NCBI GenBank assembly: GCA_020692245.1
Contig: JAIMKT010000008.1
Span: forward strand, 11,354-64,691
DNA: 53,338 nt
Origin: Microcoleus sp. GA_180221_E-2-1-MAG-45_12
Lineage (GTDB): Bacteria; Cyanobacteriota; Cyanobacteriia; Cyanobacteriales; JAAUUE01
Reading direction: 5' to 3'
Shown here: positions 1,944 to 48,648 of the stretch, one piece after another
Layout: each line of letters opens with the position of its first letter
Numbering within the stretch: position 1 is the first letter of the stretch
Position numbers and translations under genes: made by a program
Notes under the pieces: generated by a model
The model's database searches: none
The model's input: only the letters and a program-made list of their open reading frames with translations
Told to the model about the DNA's origin: nothing

Positions 1944-4244
1944 ATGATTTCAACTTGGATCAATGGGACAACCCGTAGCGGCAAGACGACTCGCTTGGTG
2001 GCAGGCTACTGCCAATGGGTAGAAACTCCCCCTAAGCCCCGGTTTTCTGGTGGAGGGTTTGGGCTTTCTCATCCGCCAGTTTTGGTGTTGGCTGCTAACG
2101 ATGATAGCAAACGGGAGCTAAATGAGCAGTTGACGATCGCCACTCAGGGAAAATATCCTGTCACCATTAAAAGCCCTCTTGGTTTTTTTCAGGAGGAAGT
2201 ATTATTATTTTTTCCACTATTAATCCAATCTTGGGCTGAATCTCAGCAATTACCCCAAACCCCGCCTCCTCTATTTCCCTTAAAGCTCCACCCCGAAACT
2301 GAACAGGAAATGGCAACTCGTCTCTGGCAAAACCGCCTCACGCCCTCCGTCCTTCAGCAGGCAGGAACTGGAGAATATCAGCTAGTCCGGCGCATTTTAG
2401 ATTTAATGATGTTGGCGGGTTTAAGTGGGGTGAGTTTAGAAGATATTCCGGTGATGCTACATCAGGGCTTAGCGGGGGAAGAAGACCCAGCTTTGTATCC
2501 CCTCTATGGTGAACTTTTGCAGGCATGGTATGACTGGTGCTGGCAACGGGGTTTTTTGACCTACGGAATTATTACCCAACTCTACTGGCGGTATCTGCTA
2601 CCCCACCCAGATTACCAAAGGAATTTGCTGCAACGAACGGCGGCGGTGTTTGCGGATGATGTGGATGATTATCCGGCGATCGCCTGTGATTTATTAGAAC
2701 TGCTCCTCGATCGAGGGGTACAGGGCATGTTTACCTATAACCCTAATGGCAAGGTACGACTGGGCTTAAATGCTGATCCAGATTATCTACTGGGCTTGGC
2801 TTCTCGCTGTCGGGTGGAAAATTTAACCGGGCTGGTCTTGGGAGAAAGTGGGGATAATTCTGGCAATATTGCCGAGACGATGGTGGATTTGGTGAGTAAT
2901 CCAGTGTTTCTGCCCGTGCTGCCGCCCAATCTCCGGGGCATCCAAACGGTGGCTCGATCGCAAATGCTCCGTCAGACAGCAACCACAATTATTGATCTGG
3001 TGCGTTCGGGAGTAGAACCGAGGGAAATTGCCGTCATTGCTCCGGGTTTAGATGCGATCGCCCGCTACACGCTCACAGAAATCCTCACGGCTCAAGGCAT
3101 TGGGGTCTATGGTCTGAATACCCAAAATCCTCTCAACAGTATGGCGATCATCCGGGGTTTGTTGACTTTGTTAGCTTTGGTATATCCGGGGCTAGGGAGA
3201 TTAATCACGGGGCAACGGGTAGCCGAAATGTTAGTTATCCTCAGTGGTAGATCACCTCAATTACCCAATCAATCACCCTCTCAATCTGCCAACGCTTCCG
3301 AAAAATCTCTCGATCAATTCTCAACCAGAGAAACCTACGATATCGATCCTGTCCGGGCTGGTTTATTAGTTGATCATTGCTTTGTGCCGGATCCAGAATT
3401 GCCGCAATTATTGCCAGAATCGAGCTTTCCCCGTTGGGATCGACTGGGAGCCAAAGCTACGGCTGCCTATGGAGAAATTCGTCAATGGATCGAAGAGCAA
3501 CGCCTCCAACAACAACAGAGGTTAGCTTTTAGTGCGATCGCTGTCCTCGATCGAGCCATGCAAAAATTTCTATTTCCCCGCCGCCATCTCAACTATGAGC
3601 AACTATCTGGATTGCGGGCTTTGATGGAAACTGCCCAACACTACTGGGAAGTAGACCAACGGGTACGCCAAAATCAATCCCAAAATCAATTCCAGCATCA
3701 ATCTTCTAATCCCTATCAACGCCCCAAACCCGGCTACGCCGACACGATCGCCCAATTTATCCAGATGCTAGACCTCGGTACTGTCACCGCCAATCCCTAT
3801 CCTGTCCAACGTTTCACCCCCCAAACTGTTAATAGTGTCACCCTTGCCAACATTTTCCAATATCGCCAAGACCGCAGTTTTCATCCCTACCATTTTTGGC
3901 TCGATGTGGGTTCGTCTTTCTGGCTGAGTGGCGGGGCGGCGACTCTCTATGCTGCCCCTATTTTCCTCAAGGGCTGGCGGGGACAACCTTGGACGGTGGA
4001 AAATGATTATGATGCGGATGATCAAAGGCTAAAACGGATTATTCACGACCTCCTCGGCAGGGTGGGGAAGCAACTTTATCTCTGTCATAGTGACCTTGCA
4101 GCGAATGGACAGGAACAAACAGGCCCTTTGTTAGCAGTGGTTAATGCGGCGCTGGCGATCGACACTTTTCCCGAAGACGATCCAGAAAATACTCAGGCTC
4201 CCAACACTGTCCCAAAAGTTACCCCAGAATTGTATCCAAGATAA
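1944..4244 (+). CDS. P-loop helicase-like protein (UvrD/AddB-like, cyanobacterial)
   Basis: 766-residue soluble protein of uncertain function. A Walker A motif opens the protein (NGTTRSGKTTRLV, residues 7-19), and a Walker-B-like segment AAVFADDVDDYPAIA lies near residue 235, in the place where UvrD-type helicases carry DExQD. The order P-loop, helical insert, acidic motif and long C-terminal region resembles superfamily I helicase or AddB/RexB-like nuclease-helicase subunits. I see no clear motif IV-VI set and no iron-sulfur nuclease cysteines, so activity is doubtful. Regions near 450 and 590 are Gln/Ser/Asn-rich linkers. It may be a DNA-repair accessory protein; that is inference. It is co-directional with the ferredoxin 59 bp downstream. 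Confidence 0.6.
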   Translation: MISTWINGTTRSGKTTRLVAGYCQWVETPPKPRFSGGGFGLSHPPVLVLAANDDSKRELNEQLTIATQGKYPVTIKSPLGFFQEEVLLFFPLLIQSWAESQQLPQTPPPLFPLKLHPETEQEMATRLWQNRLTPSVLQQAGTGEYQLVRRILDLMMLAGLSGVSLEDIPVMLHQGLAGEEDPALYPLYGELLQAWYDWCWQRGFLTYGIITQLYWRYLLPHPDYQRNLLQRTAAVFADDVDDYPAIACDLLELLLDRGVQGMFTYNPNGKVRLGLNADPDYLLGLASRCRVENLTGLVLGESGDNSGNIAETMVDLVSNPVFLPVLPPNLRGIQTVARSQMLRQTATTIIDLVRSGVEPREIAVIAPGLDAIARYTLTEILTAQGIGVYGLNTQNPLNSMAIIRGLLTLLALVYPGLGRLITGQRVAEMLVILSGRSPQLPNQSPSQSANASEKSLDQFSTRETYDIDPVRAGLLVDHCFVPDPELPQLLPESSFPRWDRLGAKATAAYGEIRQWIEEQRLQQQQRLAFSAIAVLDRAMQKFLFPRRHLNYEQLSGLRALMETAQHYWEVDQRVRQNQSQNQFQHQSSNPYQRPKPGYADTIAQFIQMLDLGTVTANPYPVQRFTPQTVNSVTLANIFQYRQDRSFHPYHFWLDVGSSFWLSGGAATLYAAPIFLKGWRGQPWTVENDYDADDQRLKRIIHDLLGRVGKQLYLCHSDLAANGQEQTGPLLAVVNAALAIDTFPEDDPENTQAPNTVPKVTPELYPR

Positions 4245-4266: not shown

Positions 4267-4284
4267 TATCCCCAAGACTTTATT

Positions 4285-4296
4285 TCGGCTCCGCTC
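4285..4296 (+). repeat. Core of a small dispersed repeat upstream of the ferredoxin gene
   Basis: TCGGCTCCGCTC, followed by AGTAACC and the ATG at 4304. The same 12-bp architecture (TCGnCnnnGCTC) forms the centre of the two palindromic insertions in the first TnpB element at 37142-37231. No good Shine-Dalgarno sequence is seen between this repeat and the ATG, so the repeat occupies the place where one would be expected. Confidence 0.45.
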
Positions 4297-4303
4297 AGTA
4301 ACC

Positions 4304-8548: not shown

Positions 8549-9394
8549 TTAACTCTTTGTACCACACAATAAGCCGTAGCGAATTAAGCTCCGTTGATAG
8601 CCACTCCGCATTAAAGGTAATACTAAAGCTCCCTCGATCGTCTCCCAGTTACTTTTTAGCAATCCCCCTAGGGCTTCCCAAGAAAATGCCGAAGCGATAA
8701 CCGCATCCCAAAACGGAGCTACAGCACTAGACCAATCTGCCGTGCGAATCTGCTGGAAGTTAAGCTCTTGGGCGAGGTTTTCATAGTCATCGATCGAGAC
8801 TACCGGAGGCAAACAATAAACTCGGTAAATTTCCGCTAAATGGCGTTGCTCTTGGGGCGTTAATTCCCCCGTGGCTGGGGTTGGGGGACGATGACACCAA
8901 GTTGCCATCAGCAGCAATCCTCCCGGTTTCAGGACTCGGTACGCCTCTTGGAGAAATTGCTTTTTATCAGGAAAATGTTCGGCACTCTCCAAAGACCACA
9001 CCAAATCAAAGCTCTGGTCAGCAAAGGGCATGGCTAAGGCATCAGCGACTAAAAAACTGGTGCGATCGCTCAACCCCTGACTTGCGGCTCGAACTTCTGC
9101 CCGGTTCGCCTGCACAGGACTAAGGGTGATACCTGTCACTTGAGCATGATATTTTTCTGCCAAATACAGGGAACTGCCCCCGATCCCGCATCCCACATCC
9201 AGAATTTGCCCCAGTTGCCCTACTTTCCCCCAAGCGAGTAACTCCTCGATCAGGTCTATCTGGGCTTGACGGCGTTCTTTGCGTTCTCGTCCAGTAGCCC
9301 CATAGTAGCCGTGGTGGAGATGTTCCCCCCAAATTTCTTCCCATAAGCCAGAGGAATTGTCATAAAATTGCTGAATGCGTTGATTAAGAGACAT
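8549..9394 (-). CDS. Gamma-tocopherol C-methyltransferase
   Basis: 281-residue SAM-dependent class I methyltransferase that converts gamma- to alpha-tocopherol, the last step of vitamin E synthesis. The start (IQQFYDNSSGLWEEIWGEHL, then HHGYYG) is highly characteristic of Synechocystis Slr0089 and plant VTE4. Motif I is ILDVGCGIGGSSLYLAEKY near residue 63, post-I ITLSPVQANRA, and motif II FDLVWSLESAEHFPDK. The later TWCHRPP and the C-terminal DWSSAVAPFWDAVI are also shared with that group. Sarcosine/dimethylglycine and MPBQ methyltransferases are the main alternatives, but these motifs fit tocopherol methyltransferase best. Upstream of hpt and probably co-transcribed. Confidence 0.88.
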   Translation of the reverse strand: MSLNQRIQQFYDNSSGLWEEIWGEHLHHGYYGATGRERKERRQAQIDLIEELLAWGKVGQLGQILDVGCGIGGSSLYLAEKYHAQVTGITLSPVQANRAEVRAASQGLSDRTSFLVADALAMPFADQSFDLVWSLESAEHFPDKKQFLQEAYRVLKPGGLLLMATWCHRPPTPATGELTPQEQRHLAEIYRVYCLPPVVSIDDYENLAQELNFQQIRTADWSSAVAPFWDAVIASAFSWEALGGLLKSNWETIEGALVLPLMRSGYQRSLIRYGLLCGTKS

Positions 9395-9465
9395 AGGGAA
9401 GATTAAAAATTAGCTACTGGTGCATTCTAACATTATCTCTAGGGGCGAACTTTTGACAGCCAACA

Positions 9466-9498
9466 GGTACAAGCAAAGAGGGCGCAAAGCCTTGTACC
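9466..9498. repeat. Inverted repeat upstream of the aldo/keto reductase
   Basis: Perfect 8-bp arms GGTACAAG and CTTGTACC enclose a 17-nt centre containing two CAAAG motifs. It lies between the divergent methyltransferase and aldo/keto reductase genes. The sequence GGGCGCAAAGCCTTGTACC looks like a dispersed cyanobacterial repeat rather than a specific operator. Confidence 0.5.
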
Positions 9499-9538
9499 CC
9501 TGCGAATATTTTTATTGATATTTTGGAAAATAGGTTTT

Positions 9539-10657
9539 ATGCTTTATCGGCGCTTTGGGAAAACTAACTTAAATTTATCCGTGTTTTCCTGTGGGACGAT
9601 GCGCTGTCTGGAATCTGCGGAGATTTTTCAGGAGACGATCGAGGCAGCCCTAGCTTCTGGGGTCAATCATCTGGAAACTGCTAGGGGCTATGGTAAAAGT
9701 GAATTGTATCTGGGGCAGGCGATCGCTTCTGGTCTGGGCGTACTACGGGAAAATCTCTACATCACTACCAAAGTATTACCCACCCCTGATCCCGAAAAAA
9801 TGCGCCGAGAAATTGATGCATCCCTAGAGCTTTTGCAGGTAGATTATCTAGACTGTATGGCAATTCATGGAATTAATACTTGGGAACATCTAGACTGGAC
9901 AAAATCTAGCTGGTCAGCAATTCAAGCTGCCCTAGATACGGGGAAAATTCGCCATGTGGGTTTTTCTACCCATGCACCCCTAGAAATTATTTTGGCAACT
10001 ATTCAGACTAATTTGTTTGAGTTTGTGAATCTGCATTACTACTATTTTTTTCAACGTCACGCTCCAGCGATCGACCTAGCCCATGCCCAAGATTTAGGAA
10101 TTTTTATTATTTCCCCTGCTGATAAAGGCGGCTTACTCTACGATCCCCCACCAAAATTGCAGGAATTGTGCGCTCCTCACCAGCCCCTAGATTTAACCTA
10201 TCGTTGGCTCCTGAATGATCCCCGGATTACCACCCTCAGTTTTGGGGCAGCAACGGCGGCAGAAGTAGCTCCCGTATTAACCAGTAATTATTCTCAACCC
10301 CTCAGCCCAACAGAAATAAAAATTTTTGAGAATCTAGAAACCCATTTGTCCCAAAGCCTCGGTACGGATAAATGTAGCCAGTGTTATGCCTGTCTGCCCT
10401 GTCCAGAAAATATTGCCATCCCCGAAATTCTGCGTCTGCGAAATCTAGCCGTTGCCTACGACATGACCAACTATGGAGAATACCGCTATGGAATGTTGGG
10501 AAATGCCGGACATTGGGTTCCCGGAGCCAAGGGCGATCGATGTACCCAGTGCGGTGATTGTCTGCCCCGTTGCCCAGAACAGCTACCCATCCCCCAACTA
10601 TTAGAAAACACCCATCAGAAGTTAAAAGGTTCCCCACGCAGACGGTTATGGGGATAG
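9539..10657 (+). CDS. Aldo/keto reductase with C-terminal ferredoxin-like domain
   Basis: 372 residues from the ATG at 9539 (MLYRRFGKTNLNLSVFSCGT, the classic family start); the track's 9515 start adds eight residues. The N-terminal (beta/alpha)8 barrel carries the catalytic elements: Asp in the early strand, Tyr in ETARGYGKSELYLG, Lys in TTKVLP and His in CMAIHGIN. The last ~100 residues form a [4Fe-4S]-type domain with KCSQCYACLPCPENIAIP and RCTQCGDCLPRCPEQLPIP. This fusion is common in cyanobacteria and anaerobes; the physiological substrate is unknown. The cysteines suggest a possible redox link to ferredoxin as well as NADPH. Confidence 0.88.
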   Translation: MLYRRFGKTNLNLSVFSCGTMRCLESAEIFQETIEAALASGVNHLETARGYGKSELYLGQAIASGLGVLRENLYITTKVLPTPDPEKMRREIDASLELLQVDYLDCMAIHGINTWEHLDWTKSSWSAIQAALDTGKIRHVGFSTHAPLEIILATIQTNLFEFVNLHYYYFFQRHAPAIDLAHAQDLGIFIISPADKGGLLYDPPPKLQELCAPHQPLDLTYRWLLNDPRITTLSFGAATAAEVAPVLTSNYSQPLSPTEIKIFENLETHLSQSLGTDKCSQCYACLPCPENIAIPEILRLRNLAVAYDMTNYGEYRYGMLGNAGHWVPGAKGDRCTQCGDCLPRCPEQLPIPQLLENTHQKLKGSPRRRLWG

Positions 10658-36181: not shown

Positions 36182-36973
36182 TTAGCAACTAGTTGTAACT
36201 TGCCGGATTGCCACGCTATTTTGCAGATGCCCAATGCCTTCGATTTCTACCCGCACATGATCGCCGGGCTTGATTTCACCTACGCCTTCGGGGGTTCCCG
36301 TGAGGATAATATCCCCCGGTAGGAGAGTCATGACTTGGGAAATATAGGATACAAGGAACTCTGGCGAAAAAACCATATCACTGATGGGGGCAGATTGCAC
36401 TGGCTCAGGATCATCATTCAGAAAGGTTTTTACCCGTGCTGCCGGGCTGATTTCTCTGACCACCCACGGACCTAAGGGACAGAAACTATCAAACCCCTTC
36501 GCTCTTGTCCATTGTCCGTCACTTTTTTGTAGATCCCTTGCCGTGACATCGTTGGCGATCGTGTAACCCCAAATTTTACTGCGAGCTTGGGCGGGGGTGC
36601 AATTACAAGCTCGATCGCTAATCACCAGAGCTAGTTCTCCCTCGTAGTCTACCCGTTGTGACTGGGGTGGATAATAAATTTCTTTGTCTGCCGCCGTAAT
36701 CGTCGTGGGTGGCTTGAGAAACAAAAGAGGTTCCTTGGGGACAGGGGTTCCCATCTCCGCAGCATGGGCCCGATAATTTTTACCGACAGCCACAATTTTT
36801 GAGGGGGCGCAGGGGGCAAGAAGTTGGTAGTCTTCAGGAGATAGCTCTAATCCATTAGGTTCTCCTTCTAACCAAGGCGGGGCATCAAGGACATGAACTG
36901 TTCGATCGAGGGTCAACAATCCATAATAGATTTGCCCCGGAGTAGTTCTCACACGGACGTAGCGCAATGCCAT
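36182..36973 (-). CDS. Fumarylacetoacetate hydrolase family protein
   Basis: 263 residues. The FAH catalytic domain starts KIVAVGKNYRAHAAEMGTPV and has the metal ligands (Glu-Glu-Asp) in DYEGELALVISDRACNC and IWGYTIANDVTARDLQKSDG; GTPEGVGEIKPGD closes the active site. The family hydrolyses or decarboxylates beta-keto acids (acylpyruvases, oxaloacetate decarboxylases, bifunctional isomerase/decarboxylases). The oxaloacetate/acylpyruvate group is the likeliest class. The first TnpB element lies 133 bp upstream in the same orientation. Confidence 0.88.
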   Translation of the reverse strand: MALRYVRVRTTPGQIYYGLLTLDRTVHVLDAPPWLEGEPNGLELSPEDYQLLAPCAPSKIVAVGKNYRAHAAEMGTPVPKEPLLFLKPPTTITAADKEIYYPPQSQRVDYEGELALVISDRACNCTPAQARSKIWGYTIANDVTARDLQKSDGQWTRAKGFDSFCPLGPWVVREISPAARVKTFLNDDPEPVQSAPISDMVFSPEFLVSYISQVMTLLPGDIILTGTPEGVGEIKPGDHVRVEIEGIGHLQNSVAIRQVTTSC

Positions 36974-37130
36974 AGAAATTTATAGATGGTGTTTATTAAA
37001 AAAAGTACCCAGCAAATCCCCACGCAGAAGTCAAATAATCGATTTAAATACTCGGCTATCCCCAGAAAAGGATTTGTTGAAAAGCAAGTTTCAAAGCAAT
37101 TATATACCGCTCTGTAAAACCTGTGCAAAC

Positions 37131-38417
37131 CTAGGCAACATCACTTCGGCAAGGCTCAGTGGCCTCAAAAATAGATAATTGCTTAAATTCACTGTTTACT
37201 TCCTGCTTCACGGTTCGACTTCGCTCACCGTACATTGTGGTTCTGCTATGACTAACAGAAGGTTTGTCCACTCCACAGGCAATCTTGGCAGAGCTTGCCA
37301 TTTGATCCAAACGAATCGGAATATTAATTCCTTCAAACCATCGTTGGATATTCTTAGCCGCATTCAAGTCCCTATCTTCCACATATCCACAGTCAAGGCA
37401 TTTATAAATACGCTCTTTCAGTGGCATTTTGTGACGATGGTTCCCACAGTTAGAGCAAATTTGACTAGAGGGAAACATTCTATCCACGAGGATGAGTTGA
37501 CTTGAAAACTTCTGAGTTTTGTACTCTAGTTGTCGGCGGAACTCATACATTCCACAGTCAGCAATAGCTCCTGCTAGCTTGTGATTCTTTAGAAATGCCT
37601 TGATACTCAAATCCTCAATCTTAATCTCGCTGTGGTTCTTGGCAAGATGGGTAGTGAGTTTATGAATGGCATCCTTACGAATATTGGAGACTCTAGCGTG
37701 AACTTTTGCCAGACTACGGACTGCTTTAGTTCTGTTTTTAGAACCTTTCTCCTTACGGCTAACTGCCCGTTGCAAGTGTTTGAATCTCTTACTCATTCTG
37801 CGATAAGCCTTGGGGTTAGGAAAGACTTCACCGTTAGAACAAACAGCTAATTCCTTGATGCCAATGTCCACACCAACAGATGGGCGGTTAATGGCTACTT
37901 CTGGTAATTGGATTTCTTGTTTGACAGAAATAAACCATTTATCAGCCTGTCTGCTTATGGTGCAATTATGTATGGCGGTCATGGGTAATGGTTCCGCTAG
38001 TCTTACCCAGCCAATGCTAGGCAGATTTATTCGCTTACCATCGTTCCTGATTTTGGGATTAGCTACGGTTCCATACTCAAGGTAGAAAGAATCACTGCGA
38101 CCTTTTTTCTTGAATCTGGGAGCCTTGCTGATTTTCTTAAAACATCTATCCCATGCTGTTCTCAGATCGGCTACTGCCTTTTGGGGAATAGCTTTAGAAA
38201 CCTCGTAATACCATTCACAGTTAGGCTTGACTTCGGCAATTAATCGCTTATGTAGATCAATGGCTGAAGGAGCTTTTTCTTTGTTCTCAAGACATGATTG
38301 CACAGTAGCACAAGCCCAGTTGTAAGCGTGTCTAGCTACGCCAGAAGCTTTTCTAAAAAGGGTTAACTGTTTGTTGTTGGGTTTTAGTTCGGTCTTGAAA
38401 CTAAGGAGCATGGTCAA
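37131..38417 (-). CDS. tnpB: TnpB RNA-guided nuclease, copy 1
   Basis: 428 residues of the OrfB/TnpB family, ancestors of Cas12 nucleases; with an omega RNA it cuts DNA next to the TAM. The RuvC-like site appears intact: Asp in SVGVDIGIKELAVCSNG, Glu in IKIEDLSIKAFLKNHK and Asp in CGYVEDRDLNAAKNIQR. The zinc finger is ICSNCGNHRHKMP plus IYKCLDCGYV. The N-terminal helix-turn-helix-like region starts MLLSFKTELKPNNKQLTLFR. It is about 90% identical by eye to copy 2, and the C-terminus has two extra 8-residue blocks (within MYGERSRTV and FEATEPCRSDVA). Downstream of the stop the omega RNA should run to about 37107. Confidence 0.92.
   Translation of the reverse strand: MTMLLSFKTELKPNNKQLTLFRKASGVARHAYNWACATVQSCLENKEKAPSAIDLHKRLIAEVKPNCEWYYEVSKAIPQKAVADLRTAWDRCFKKISKAPRFKKKGRSDSFYLEYGTVANPKIRNDGKRINLPSIGWVRLAEPLPMTAIHNCTISRQADKWFISVKQEIQLPEVAINRPSVGVDIGIKELAVCSNGEVFPNPKAYRRMSKRFKHLQRAVSRKEKGSKNRTKAVRSLAKVHARVSNIRKDAIHKLTTHLAKNHSEIKIEDLSIKAFLKNHKLAGAIADCGMYEFRRQLEYKTQKFSSQLILVDRMFPSSQICSNCGNHRHKMPLKERIYKCLDCGYVEDRDLNAAKNIQRWFEGINIPIRLDQMASSAKIACGVDKPSVSHSRTTMYGERSRTVKQEVNSEFKQLSIFEATEPCRSDVA
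37142..37161. repeat. Small dispersed palindrome inserted in the 3' end of tnpB copy 1 (insert A)
   Basis: CACTTCGGCAAGGCTCAGTG: inverted arms CACT/AGTG around TCGGCAAGGCTC. Absent from copy 2, where 6 bp replace 30 bp at this position, a net gain of 24 bp. Confidence 0.75.
37210..37231. repeat. Small dispersed palindrome inserted in tnpB copy 1 (insert B)
   Basis: ACGGT-TCGACTTCGCTC-ACCGT: perfect 5-bp arms around a 12-bp core like that of insert A. Copy 2 has 4 bp in place of 28 here, again a net gain of 24 bp, keeping the frame. Confidence 0.75.
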
Positions 38418-38452
38418 GATGCTTGAAGATATTTTTGTATGATATCAATCCC

Positions 38453-38470
38453 TTACCTCCCTGTACCTCC
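38453..38470. repeat. 18-bp repeat shared with 18668-18685 (inverted)
   Basis: TTACCTCCCTGTACCTCC is the exact reverse complement of the unit in the CHAT/anti-sigma gap. It starts five bases from the TnpB element border, upstream of rpsF. Confidence 0.7.
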
Positions 38471-38516
38471 TTCCCTTAACCTTTAAAAAAATCTTCCGCC
38501 CCATCCCCATGGGTAG

Positions 38517-38522
38517 TATAAT
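38517..38522 (+). promoter_or_regulatory. Candidate -10 element upstream of rpsF
   Basis: Perfect TATAAT in GGGTAGTATAATTAAAAATC, 83 bp before the rpsF ATG; no convincing -35 box is seen. AAGGAG at 38594-38599 gives rpsF a strong ribosome-binding site. Confidence 0.5.
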
Positions 38523-38604
38523 TAAAAATCCTTGCTTCTGTATTACTAAAAGTATTTTATTACTCAAGTTATTCTAGGAAGCCTCAAGTCCATAAGGAGA
38601 AAAA

Positions 38605-38952
38605 ATGGCTCAACAACTTTATGAAACTATGTATATCCTGCGTCCAGACCTTAATGAGGAGCAGGTAAATGCCACGATCGACAAATACCGCACTTTCTTA
38701 GTAGAATCTGGGGTTGAAGAAGTAGAAATTAAGCTCATGGGTCGCCGCCGTCTTGCCTACGAGATCGATCGATTTCGGGATGGGATCTATGTGCTGATGA
38801 ACTATGCCGCCCTAGGCAACCATGTAGCACCGATGCAACGGACTATGCGTCTCAGCGAAGAGGTAATTCGTTACCTAACTCTTAAGGTGGAACCCCCCAA
38901 ACCTGTGAAGGAACCCTACGTGGCTCCCGAAGCAGTTGCGGTGGAAGCTTAG
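38605..38952 (+). CDS. rpsF: 30S ribosomal protein S6
   Basis: 115 residues. YETMYILRPDLNEEQVNATI, then MGRRRLAYEIDRFRDGIYVL and AALGNHVAPMQRTMRLSEEV, ending IRYLTLKVE, is S6, which binds with S18 to the platform of the small subunit. A short acidic/Pro/Val tail (EPYVAPEAVAVEA) is typical of cyanobacterial S6. A strong Shine-Dalgarno precedes the ATG. It stands alone, without rpsR or ssb nearby. Confidence 0.97.
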   Translation: MAQQLYETMYILRPDLNEEQVNATIDKYRTFLVESGVEEVEIKLMGRRRLAYEIDRFRDGIYVLMNYAALGNHVAPMQRTMRLSEEVIRYLTLKVEPPKPVKEPYVAPEAVAVEA

Positions 38953-47354: not shown

Positions 47355-48648
47355 CCGCTCTGTAAAACCTATGCAAACCTAGGCAACATTAGAAATAGAT
47401 AGTTGTCTAAATTTACTGCTTACTTCCTGCTTCGGCGTGGTTCTGCTATGACTAACAGAAGGTTTGTCCACTCCACAGGCTATCTTGGCAAAGCTTGCCA
47501 TTTGATCCACACGAATTGGAATACGAATTCCTGCAAACCATCGTTGGATATTTTTTGCCGCATTCAAGTCTCTATCTGAAGTATGTCCACAGTCAAGACA
47601 TTTATAGACACGCTCCTTTAATGGCATTTTGTGACGATGATTCCCACAGTTAGAGCAAATCTGACTAGAGGGAAACATTCTGTCCACGAGGATGAGTTGA
47701 CTTGAAAACTTTTGAGTTTTGTACTCTAGTTGACGGCGGAACTCGTGCATCCCGCAGTCAGCGATCGCCCCTGCTAGTTTGTGATTCTTTAAGAATGCCT
47801 TGATACTCAAATCCTCAATCTTAATCTCGCTGTGGTTCTTGGCAAGATGGGTAGTGAGTTTATGAATAGCATCCTTGCGAATATTGGACACTCTAGCGTG
47901 AACTTTTGCCAGACTACGGATTGCTTTAGTTCGGTTGTTTGAGCCTTTCTCTTTCCGACTAACCGCCCGTTGCAAGTGCTTTAATCTCTTACTCATCCTG
48001 CGATAAGCCTTGGGATTAGAGAACACCTCACCATTAGAACAAACAGCTAATTCCTTGATGCCAATATCCACGCCTACAGAGGGGCGGTCACTGGCAACTA
48101 AGGGTAATTCAATCTCTTGTTTAACAGAGATAAACCATTTATTAGCCTGTCTGCTAATGGTGCAATTATGCACGGCGGTCATAGGTAAAGGTTCTGCTAG
48201 TCTCACCCAGCCAATGCTAGGCAGATTTATTCGCTTCCCATCATTTCTGATTTTGGGATTAGCTACGGTTCCATACTCAAGGTAGAAAGAATCCCGTTGT
48301 CCTTTTTTCTTAAATCTGGGAGCCTTGCCTAGTTTCTTGAAACATCTGTCCCATGCTGTTCTTAGATCGGCTACTGCTTTTTGGGGAACATACTTAGAAA
48401 CCTCGTAATACCATTCACAGTTAGGCTTTACTTCGGCAACTAATCTTTTATGGAGATCAATAGCCGAAGGAGCCTTTTCCTGATTAGTAAGGTATTCTTG
48501 CACGGTAGCACAAGCCCAGTTGTAGGCGTGTCTAGCTATGCCAGAGGCTTTTCTAAATAGGGTTAACTGCTTATTGTTTGGCTTTAGTTCGGTTTTGAAA
48601 CTAAGTAGCATGGTCAAGCTGTTTTAAGATATTTTTGTATGATATCAA
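47355..48648 (-). mobile_element. TnpB-only insertion element, copy 2
   Basis: Shares CCGCTCTGTAAAACCT (right end) and GATATCAA (left end, with TTGAT on the minus strand) with copy 1. It is 1294 bp, without the two 24-bp insertions. It sits between the substrate-binding-protein gene and psbZ. The mobile part probably excludes TTGAT (47355-48643). No tnpA and no target duplication. Confidence 0.85.
47379..48617 (-). CDS. tnpB: TnpB RNA-guided nuclease, copy 2
   Basis: 412 residues. The RuvC acidic residues are intact (SVGVDIGIKELAVCSNG, IKIEDLSIKAFLKNHK, CGHTSDRDLNAAKNIQ), as are the zinc cysteines ICSNCGNHRHKMP and VYKCLDCGHT. Relative to copy 1 the C-terminus is SRTTPKQEVSSKFRQLSISN then VA, lacking both 8-residue insertions, so this is the ancestral-looking form. 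The N-terminus is nearly unchanged (MLLSFKTELKPNNKQLTLFR); differences are scattered, for example EYLTNQEKAPS against CLENKEKAPS. A functional nuclease is plausible. Confidence 0.92.
   Translation of the reverse strand: MTMLLSFKTELKPNNKQLTLFRKASGIARHAYNWACATVQEYLTNQEKAPSAIDLHKRLVAEVKPNCEWYYEVSKYVPQKAVADLRTAWDRCFKKLGKAPRFKKKGQRDSFYLEYGTVANPKIRNDGKRINLPSIGWVRLAEPLPMTAVHNCTISRQANKWFISVKQEIELPLVASDRPSVGVDIGIKELAVCSNGEVFSNPKAYRRMSKRLKHLQRAVSRKEKGSNNRTKAIRSLAKVHARVSNIRKDAIHKLTTHLAKNHSEIKIEDLSIKAFLKNHKLAGAIADCGMHEFRRQLEYKTQKFSSQLILVDRMFPSSQICSNCGNHRHKMPLKERVYKCLDCGHTSDRDLNAAKNIQRWFAGIRIPIRVDQMASFAKIACGVDKPSVSHSRTTPKQEVSSKFRQLSISNVA

What the first reader, a model, noticed from the sequence alone, without database searches (positions are those of the whole stretch)
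37141..37236. Two 24-bp palindromic insertions in the omega-RNA region of one tnpB copy, both in frame
Compared with copy 2, copy 1 has gained exactly 24 bp twice, within 105 bp of each other, near the 3' end of tnpB. Each insertion contains a palindrome with the same core plan (TCGnCnnnGCTC, arms CACT/AGTG and ACGGT/ACCGT). The plan fits the very small mobile repeats (small dispersed repeats) described in cyanobacteria. They add eight residues each without breaking the frame, yet they fall where the omega RNA scaffold is normally encoded (3' end of the ORF plus right end). A mobile repeat landing in a guide-RNA scaffold could silence the nuclease or alter its RNA.
Basis: partly seen in the sequence, partly recalled or inferred. 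Interest (0 to 1): 0.7.

Follow-up and report, generated by a model that had tools for sequence, protein, structure and literature searches.

The report
Mobile hairpins in TnpB guide RNA
In this cyanobacterium, two 24-letter mobile hairpin repeats have jumped into the guide-RNA part of a TnpB (CRISPR-ancestor) gene, one of them exactly into the loop of a sharp RNA bend, and the same bend loop holds such a repeat in guide RNAs of at least two other TnpB groups, so the spot looks like a recurring, tolerated landing site.

Summary
In detail: tnpB copy 1 has two extra 24-bp palindromic blocks (about 37141-37164 and 37211-37234), both in frame. They are insertions: copy 2, a third 3'-end copy and all aligned relatives lack them. 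They belong to a dispersed hairpin-repeat family (30 core matches against 3 control in this genome; 278 against 0 in a congener), so the small-dispersed-repeat reading holds. The surprise is where they sit. The 3' end encodes a covarying RNA with the RAGATH-18 kink-turn; insert 1 lies in its otherwise 3-nt bulge, insert 2 at the tip of a length-variable predicted hairpin. The congener carries both inserts at the same locus in a tnpB-less element. In 391 genomes of the order, 18 have the repeat beside the k-turn's 3' strand (control 0); 16 are TnpB guide-RNA-type contexts in three TnpB groups. One other group has exactly +24 nt in the same bulge, with compensatory changes in the adjoining helix. 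Several carriers have intact TnpB genes or several copies. I therefore favour a tolerated extra RNA arm over silencing. Expression and cleavage are untested; whether the repeat targets this site or only survives there is open.

The parts
37131..38417 (-). tnpB copy 1 (428 aa, intact; OrfB_IS605 and Cas12f1-like TNB domains; residues 361-428 predicted disordered)
37211..37234 (-). insert 1, 24 bp, hairpin ACGGT/ACCGT, in the bulge of the k-turn (whole bulge 37210-37236, 27 nt; exact edges ambiguous by up to 2 nt)
37141..37164 (-). insert 2, 24 bp, hairpin CACT/AGTG, at the tip of the predicted 3'-flank hairpin (edges ambiguous by 1-3 nt)
37199..37280 (-). RAGATH-18-type k-turn motif of copy 1 including insert 1 (NC helix CCTG/CAGG, C helix GTGG/CCAC, GGA and GAA strands, apical hairpin)
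37286..37300 (-). 5' hairpin of the scaffold (TGGCA/TGCCA)
37107..37121 (-). right end of the element GGTTTTACAGAGCGG; the guide follows at 37087-37106 (inferred)
47379..48617 (-). tnpB copy 2 (412 aa), without the inserts
47423..47480 (-). k-turn of copy 2, 3-nt bulge GCC (no insert)

Best explanation
Two copies of a 24-bp dispersed hairpin repeat inserted into the guide-RNA region at the 3' end of one tnpB. The protein's folded part ends near residue 360; the rest of the ORF is a disordered tail whose DNA doubles as the guide-RNA scaffold, so eight extra residues cost the protein little (partly shown, partly inferred). The scaffold contains a RAGATH-18-type kink-turn. Insert 1 enlarges its 3-nt bulge to 27 nt, leaving both helices and the GGA and GAA strands of the tandem G.A core in place, so the hairpin can project outward as an extra arm (position shown; three-dimensional arrangement inferred). 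Insert 2 lengthens the tip of the hairpin next to the guide. The scaffold probably still works (inferred). The k-turn bulge is a recurring landing or survival site for this repeat in cyanobacterial TnpB elements.
For: Exact 24-nt gaps; no-insert form in copy 2, L009 and relatives. Repeat family: 30 against 3, 278 against 0; arm positions 2-3 covary in the congener (25 of 32 paired against shuffled means of 13.4 and 10.1); 24-bp spacing of tandem copies in the congener. K-turn: 99.1% of cells paired over 29 sequences, covariation score 0.645 against 0.245 shuffled and at most 0.143 slid; Rfam RAGATH-18 matches below the gathering score (29-30 of 44.9 bits); same key positions as the crystallised RAGATH-18 k-turn, PMC8191799. 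Bulge is 3 nt in 57 and 4 nt in 2 of 61 distinct matches; only the two repeat-bearing ones are larger. Tail under RNA rather than protein constraint: dS 0.17 against 0.54 in the body, dN/dS 0.69 against 0.08 (Fisher p 0.007 and 0.005). Other TnpB groups: exactly 69 against 45 nt with compensatory C-helix changes among carriers; 18 of 391 genomes match the adjacency pattern, control 0, 28 of 30 matches in TnpB guide-RNA-type context; TnpB-like ORFs of about 400 aa in G495, G586, G468, G577, G718 and G641. L3 of a k-turn points into solvent, PMC5061560.
Against: No expression or cleavage data. Thermodynamic folding of the whole scaffold lowers the NC-helix probability to 0.02 in copy 1 against 0.98 in copy 2; the penalty of 2.1 kcal/mol is within the range of relatives (0 to 6.5) and comes from insert 1, and the calculation knows neither k-turn nor pseudoknot nor protein. 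In the congener the same RNA sits in a tnpB-less element and no close TnpB was found there (assembly 87% complete), so it may be a relic. The covariation among repeat-bearing k-turns rests on six sequences and three compensatory cells. Recurrence was searched with a pattern that already requires the repeat next to the k-turn strand, in one orientation only.
Confidence: 0.72

Rival explanations
1. The inserts cripple the guide RNA: they trap the scaffold in another fold, copy 1 is a silenced nuclease and the element is decaying.
For: Predicted loss of the NC helix in the free RNA (0.02 against 0.98); the congener's allele lacks the tnpB body.
Against: The ORF of copy 1 is intact with the conserved motifs of the family; the penalty is within the family range; repeat-bearing relatives include intact ORFs and several copies with identical scaffolds and different flanks in G468; C-helix compensation among carriers.
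Confidence: 0.15
2. Target preference alone: the repeat inserts by a mechanism that favours sequences like TGAAGCAG, which resembles its own end CGAAG, and the k-turn is irrelevant.
For: SDR5 is reported to insert at one exact point of the HIP1 palindrome (PMC4390886), so such repeats can be site-specific; in copy 1 and G277 the repeat ends right before TGAAGCAGG.
Against: Insert 2 and most genomic copies lie at other sequences. Target preference does not conflict with tolerance; the two can act together.
Confidence: 0.3
3. Ordinary neutral insertions in a dispensable protein tail, with no bearing on the RNA.
For: The tail is predicted disordered and unmatched by solved structures; the repeat family is abundant.
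Against: The tail DNA encodes a strongly covarying RNA, shows fewer synonymous changes than the body, and the bulge length is otherwise fixed at 3-4 nt.
Confidence: 0.1

Closest known systems
Small dispersed repeats of cyanobacteria (Elhai et al. 2008, Genome Res. 18:1484; SDR5 and others)
   Same: Very small palindromic dispersed repeats found as precise insertions in cyanobacterial genomes
   Different: The paper is not held, so membership in a named SDR family is untested; insertion in a TnpB k-turn was not found in the papers searched
RAGATH-18-derived guide RNA (reRNA) of IS607 TnpB (PMC11061315)
   Same: k-turn core with the same key positions, next to tnpB, followed by a conserved 3' part and the guide
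   Different: Here the RNA overlaps the end of the ORF (IS607 reRNA is described as independent of it), scores below Rfam's gathering cut-off, and carries a repeat in the bulge
k-junction (TPP riboswitch type; PMC10573300)
   Same: A k-turn elaborated by a third helix into a three-way junction
   Different: In known k-junctions the extra helix is on the non-bulged strand; here it is in the bulge
REP and REPtron systems with TnpA-REP (PMC6006769)
   Same: Short dispersed palindromes associated with Y1 transposase relatives; in one subclass REP sequences lie within the tnpA-REP genes
   Different: No REP tetranucleotide was looked for, and the enzyme that moves the present repeat is unknown

Membership tests
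Dispersed mobile hairpin repeat (SDR-like) | Many copies in the genome above chance | tested here: met
   30 against 3 control; congener 278 against 0
Dispersed mobile hairpin repeat (SDR-like) | Hairpin arms kept by compensation | tested here: met
   Arm positions 2-3 in G001: 25 of 32 paired against 13.4 and 10.1 shuffled; weaker in this genome
Dispersed mobile hairpin repeat (SDR-like) | Filled and empty sites show precise insertion | tested here: met
   Exactly 24 nt at both inserts and in G277 against L089; the third window copy at 4284 gave no clean pair
Named SDR family of Elhai et al. 2008 | Published consensus | not tested
   Paper not held
RAGATH-18 | Rfam gathering score | tested here: not met
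   29-30 bits against 44.9
RAGATH-18 | k-turn with -1b:-1n C:G, tandem G.A, 3b:3n A:G, 4b:4n G:U | tested here: met
   Present in copies 1 and 2; GAA in 36 of 36 and GGA in 33 of 36 no-insert loci; 4b:4n varies; published values
IS607 TnpB with RAGATH-18 reRNA | IS607 TnpB model above cut-off | tested here: not met
   244 of 350 bits; IS200 model 305 of 425, also below
TnpB RNA-guided nuclease | Family model above cut-off and catalytic motifs | tested here: met
   NF040570 290 bits (cut-off 100), Pfam OrfB_IS605 and Cas12f1-like TNB; D184, E268 and D350 invariant
TnpB RNA-guided nuclease | Guide-directed DNA cleavage | not testable with these tools
   Needs an assay
k-junction | Third helix on the non-bulged strand | tested here: not met
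   Insert 1 is on the bulged strand; one other element, L244, has a repeat on the other strand as well

The most novel reading that the evidence does not exclude
Mobile hairpin repeats have been repeatedly taken up as a working third arm in the k-turn bulge of TnpB guide RNAs, and in return TnpB elements serve as vehicles that carry these tiny repeats between genomes.
Probability: 0.2. Interest if true: 0.8.

Novelty: new variant of a known kind. Interest (0 to 1): 0.6.

Why it matters
It gives natural insertions of a defined hairpin at one exact position of TnpB guide RNAs from different TnpB groups, which marks a candidate site for adding RNA arms to compact genome editors. It also offers a testable answer to how 24-bp repeats without genes might spread between cyanobacteria (inside TnpB elements), and extends the RAGATH-18-type k-turn to cyanobacterial TnpB genes whose guide RNA overlaps the ORF.

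Tried and rejected
Deletion in copy 2 instead of insertion in copy 1: rejected, relatives lack the blocks. Membership in the k-junction class: rejected, wrong strand. Conservation of both inserts in the congener as proof of selection: rejected, because the whole tract around 36.6-38.75 kb is unusually similar (0-7% against about 10-20% elsewhere), so recent exchange is as likely. Matches in G091, G208, G246, G537 and G608 were looked at and are not recognisable TnpB k-turns. No paper with the core sequence as text or on repeats in TnpB guide RNA was found. A clean filled and empty site for the window's third repeat at 4284 was not obtained; the congener differs messily there. The AlphaFold model of copy 1 is of modest confidence (mean pLDDT 57, 19 sequences) and is used only for the disorder of the tail.

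Full report
Observation. The window holds two tnpB genes on the minus strand, copy 1 (37131-38417, 428 aa) and copy 2 (47379-48617, 412 aa). Their alignment shows two gaps of exactly 24 nt, both in the last 170 nt of the ORF, and no other gap in the coding part. Both blocks are palindromes with the core TCGnCnnnGCTC.

Insertion or deletion. A third 3'-end copy in the same genome (L009, G000:C65) lacks both blocks and gives a clean empty site for insert 2. Among cyanobacterial relatives fetched by protein search, about 30 aligned 3' ends lack both, and 36 distinct k-turn segments without insert have the same length within a few nt. The blocks are therefore insertions in the lineage of copy 1.

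What the inserts are. The core TGAGCNNNGNCGAA occurs 30 times in this genome against 3 for the reversed control pattern, and 278 against 0 in a genome of the same genus, G001. In G001 the arms next to the core covary: 25 of 32 paired at positions 2 and 3 against shuffled means of 13.4 and 10.1. Several tandem copies in G001 are spaced by 24 bp, which fits the exact length of the inserts. The stretch TGAGCCTTGCCGAAGTG of insert 2 has further copies in the genome. This is a dispersed hairpin repeat of the kind called small dispersed repeat. Which named family it belongs to could not be checked, because the 2008 paper is not held. Two of the three frames through the forward core have no stop, and with a 24-bp unit the frame is kept automatically, so 'both in frame' needs no selection on the peptide.

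Where they sit. Rfam finds RAGATH-18 in a relative (L082) and in L009, below its gathering score (29-30 of 44.9 bits). RAGATH-18 is the core of the guide RNA of IS607 TnpB (PMC11061315) and contains a crystallised k-turn (PMC8191799). Over 29 gap-free sequences the three helices pair in 99.1% of cells, with a covariation score of 0.645 against 0.245 in shuffles and at most 0.143 when slid. The key positions match the published RAGATH-18 k-turn: -1 pair C:G, tandem G.A, 3b:3n A:G, and 4b:4n G:U in copies 1 and 2 (the 4b:4n position varies in relatives). The bulge between C helix and GAA has almost any sequence (15 triplets in 36), and is 3 nt in 57 and 4 nt in 2 of 61 distinct matches in all loci held at that point; the two larger ones carry the repeat. 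Insert 1 makes it 27 nt. A covariance-model search of 390 genomes of the class gave about 80 matches; in the longer ones I examined the extra length lies in the apical part. Insert 2 lies at the tip of the predicted hairpin between the k-turn and the right end, a hairpin predicted in nearly all members tested, with a very variable tip.

The tail is RNA more than protein. Profile and structure matches end near residue 360 and residues 361-428 are predicted disordered, in a model of modest overall confidence. Between copies 1 and 2 the tail has dS 0.17 against 0.54 in the body and dN/dS 0.69 against 0.08 (Fisher p 0.007 and 0.005 on counts; small numbers). In Nostocales-type relatives the ORF stops just before the scaffold while the scaffold stays conserved.

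The congener. G001 has both inserts at the orthologous locus, with the same inferred guide, in a short element in which an unrelated 210-bp sequence replaces the tnpB body. L009 is a short element of the same kind without the inserts. The tract around the locus is unusually similar between the two genomes, so this shows shared history or exchange, not selection.

Recurrence. While checking bulge lengths, a second case turned up: a distant IS1341-type tnpB on a Calothrix plasmid has the repeat at the corresponding place; its relatives have a small native hairpin there, so this group is not a simple 24-bp insertion. A pattern search (repeat core, up to 20 nt, then the k-turn's 3' strand) in 390 genomes of the class found G277, where two elements of another TnpB group have exactly 24 nt more than relatives such as L089, in the same bulge. 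A second search in 391 genomes of the order with up to 8 nt gave 30 matches in 18 genomes, with no match of the reversed pattern. By context, 28 matches in 16 genomes are TnpB guide-RNA-type sequence (G537 and G608 are not); some are truncated or cut by contig ends. Carriers include TnpB-like ORFs of about 400 aa in G495, G586, G468, G577, G718 and G641, and G468 has copies with identical scaffolds and different downstream flanks, so such elements appear to have kept spreading. In the G277 group, six repeat-bearing k-turns pair fully and show compensatory C-helix changes (three cells; covariation reached by 5 of 500 shuffles). In a set of 77 distinct k-turn loci not chosen for the repeat, repeats lay in the bulge in two, in the 3' flank in one of these, and 5' of the k-turn in a third locus; none lay in a helix or apical loop. 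The numbers are small.

Mechanism. In a k-turn the first two bulge bases stack on the helices and the third points into solvent (PMC5061560). A hairpin there can project outward while helices and G.A core stay intact. That is an inference: free-RNA folding predicts a moderate penalty from insert 1 (2.1 kcal/mol, relatives 0 to 6.5; essentially none from insert 2), with no k-turn, pseudoknot or protein in the calculation. Known k-junctions carry the extra helix on the other strand (PMC10573300), so this would be a different elaboration. Whether the repeat prefers the TGAAGCAG target or merely survives there cannot be told from these data.

Verdict. The unexpected part is the recurrent occupation of one k-turn bulge in guide RNAs of several TnpB groups.

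Noticed in passing
L009 1470-1862 (G000:C65); G001:C60 about 9354-9792 (L117): Short tnpB-less elements carrying the guide-RNA 3' end behind a shared 210-bp body of unknown nature (no Rfam match, no other copy found in this genome).
   Followed up: partly
L187-L190, L196 (genomes G349, G245): Guide-RNA-only copies: only about 200 nt of the 3' end are conserved, each with a different downstream sequence; candidate stand-alone guide RNAs.
   Followed up: partly
L052, L055, L058, L093 and G349/G245 copies (L192-L195, L198): tnpB genes of relatives with other inserts, several palindromic and often with a stop codon, just before the 5' hairpin of the scaffold, uncoupling ORF and guide RNA.
   Followed up: partly
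[quoted passage not shown]
   Followed up: no
L248, L253 (G577): Two and three repeats in tandem in the bulge of IS1341-type guide RNAs.
   Followed up: no
window 4284-4297: A third copy of the repeat core, just after the ORF ending at 4244; the congener differs there but not as a clean 24-bp gap.
   Followed up: partly
L223-L229 (G246): Tandem arrays of about 172-180-bp units full of the repeat core, not recognisable as TnpB guide RNA.
   Followed up: no
window 36577-38754 against G001: Divergence drops to 0-7% around the tnpB locus against about 10-20% elsewhere, suggesting recent exchange between the two species.
   Followed up: partly
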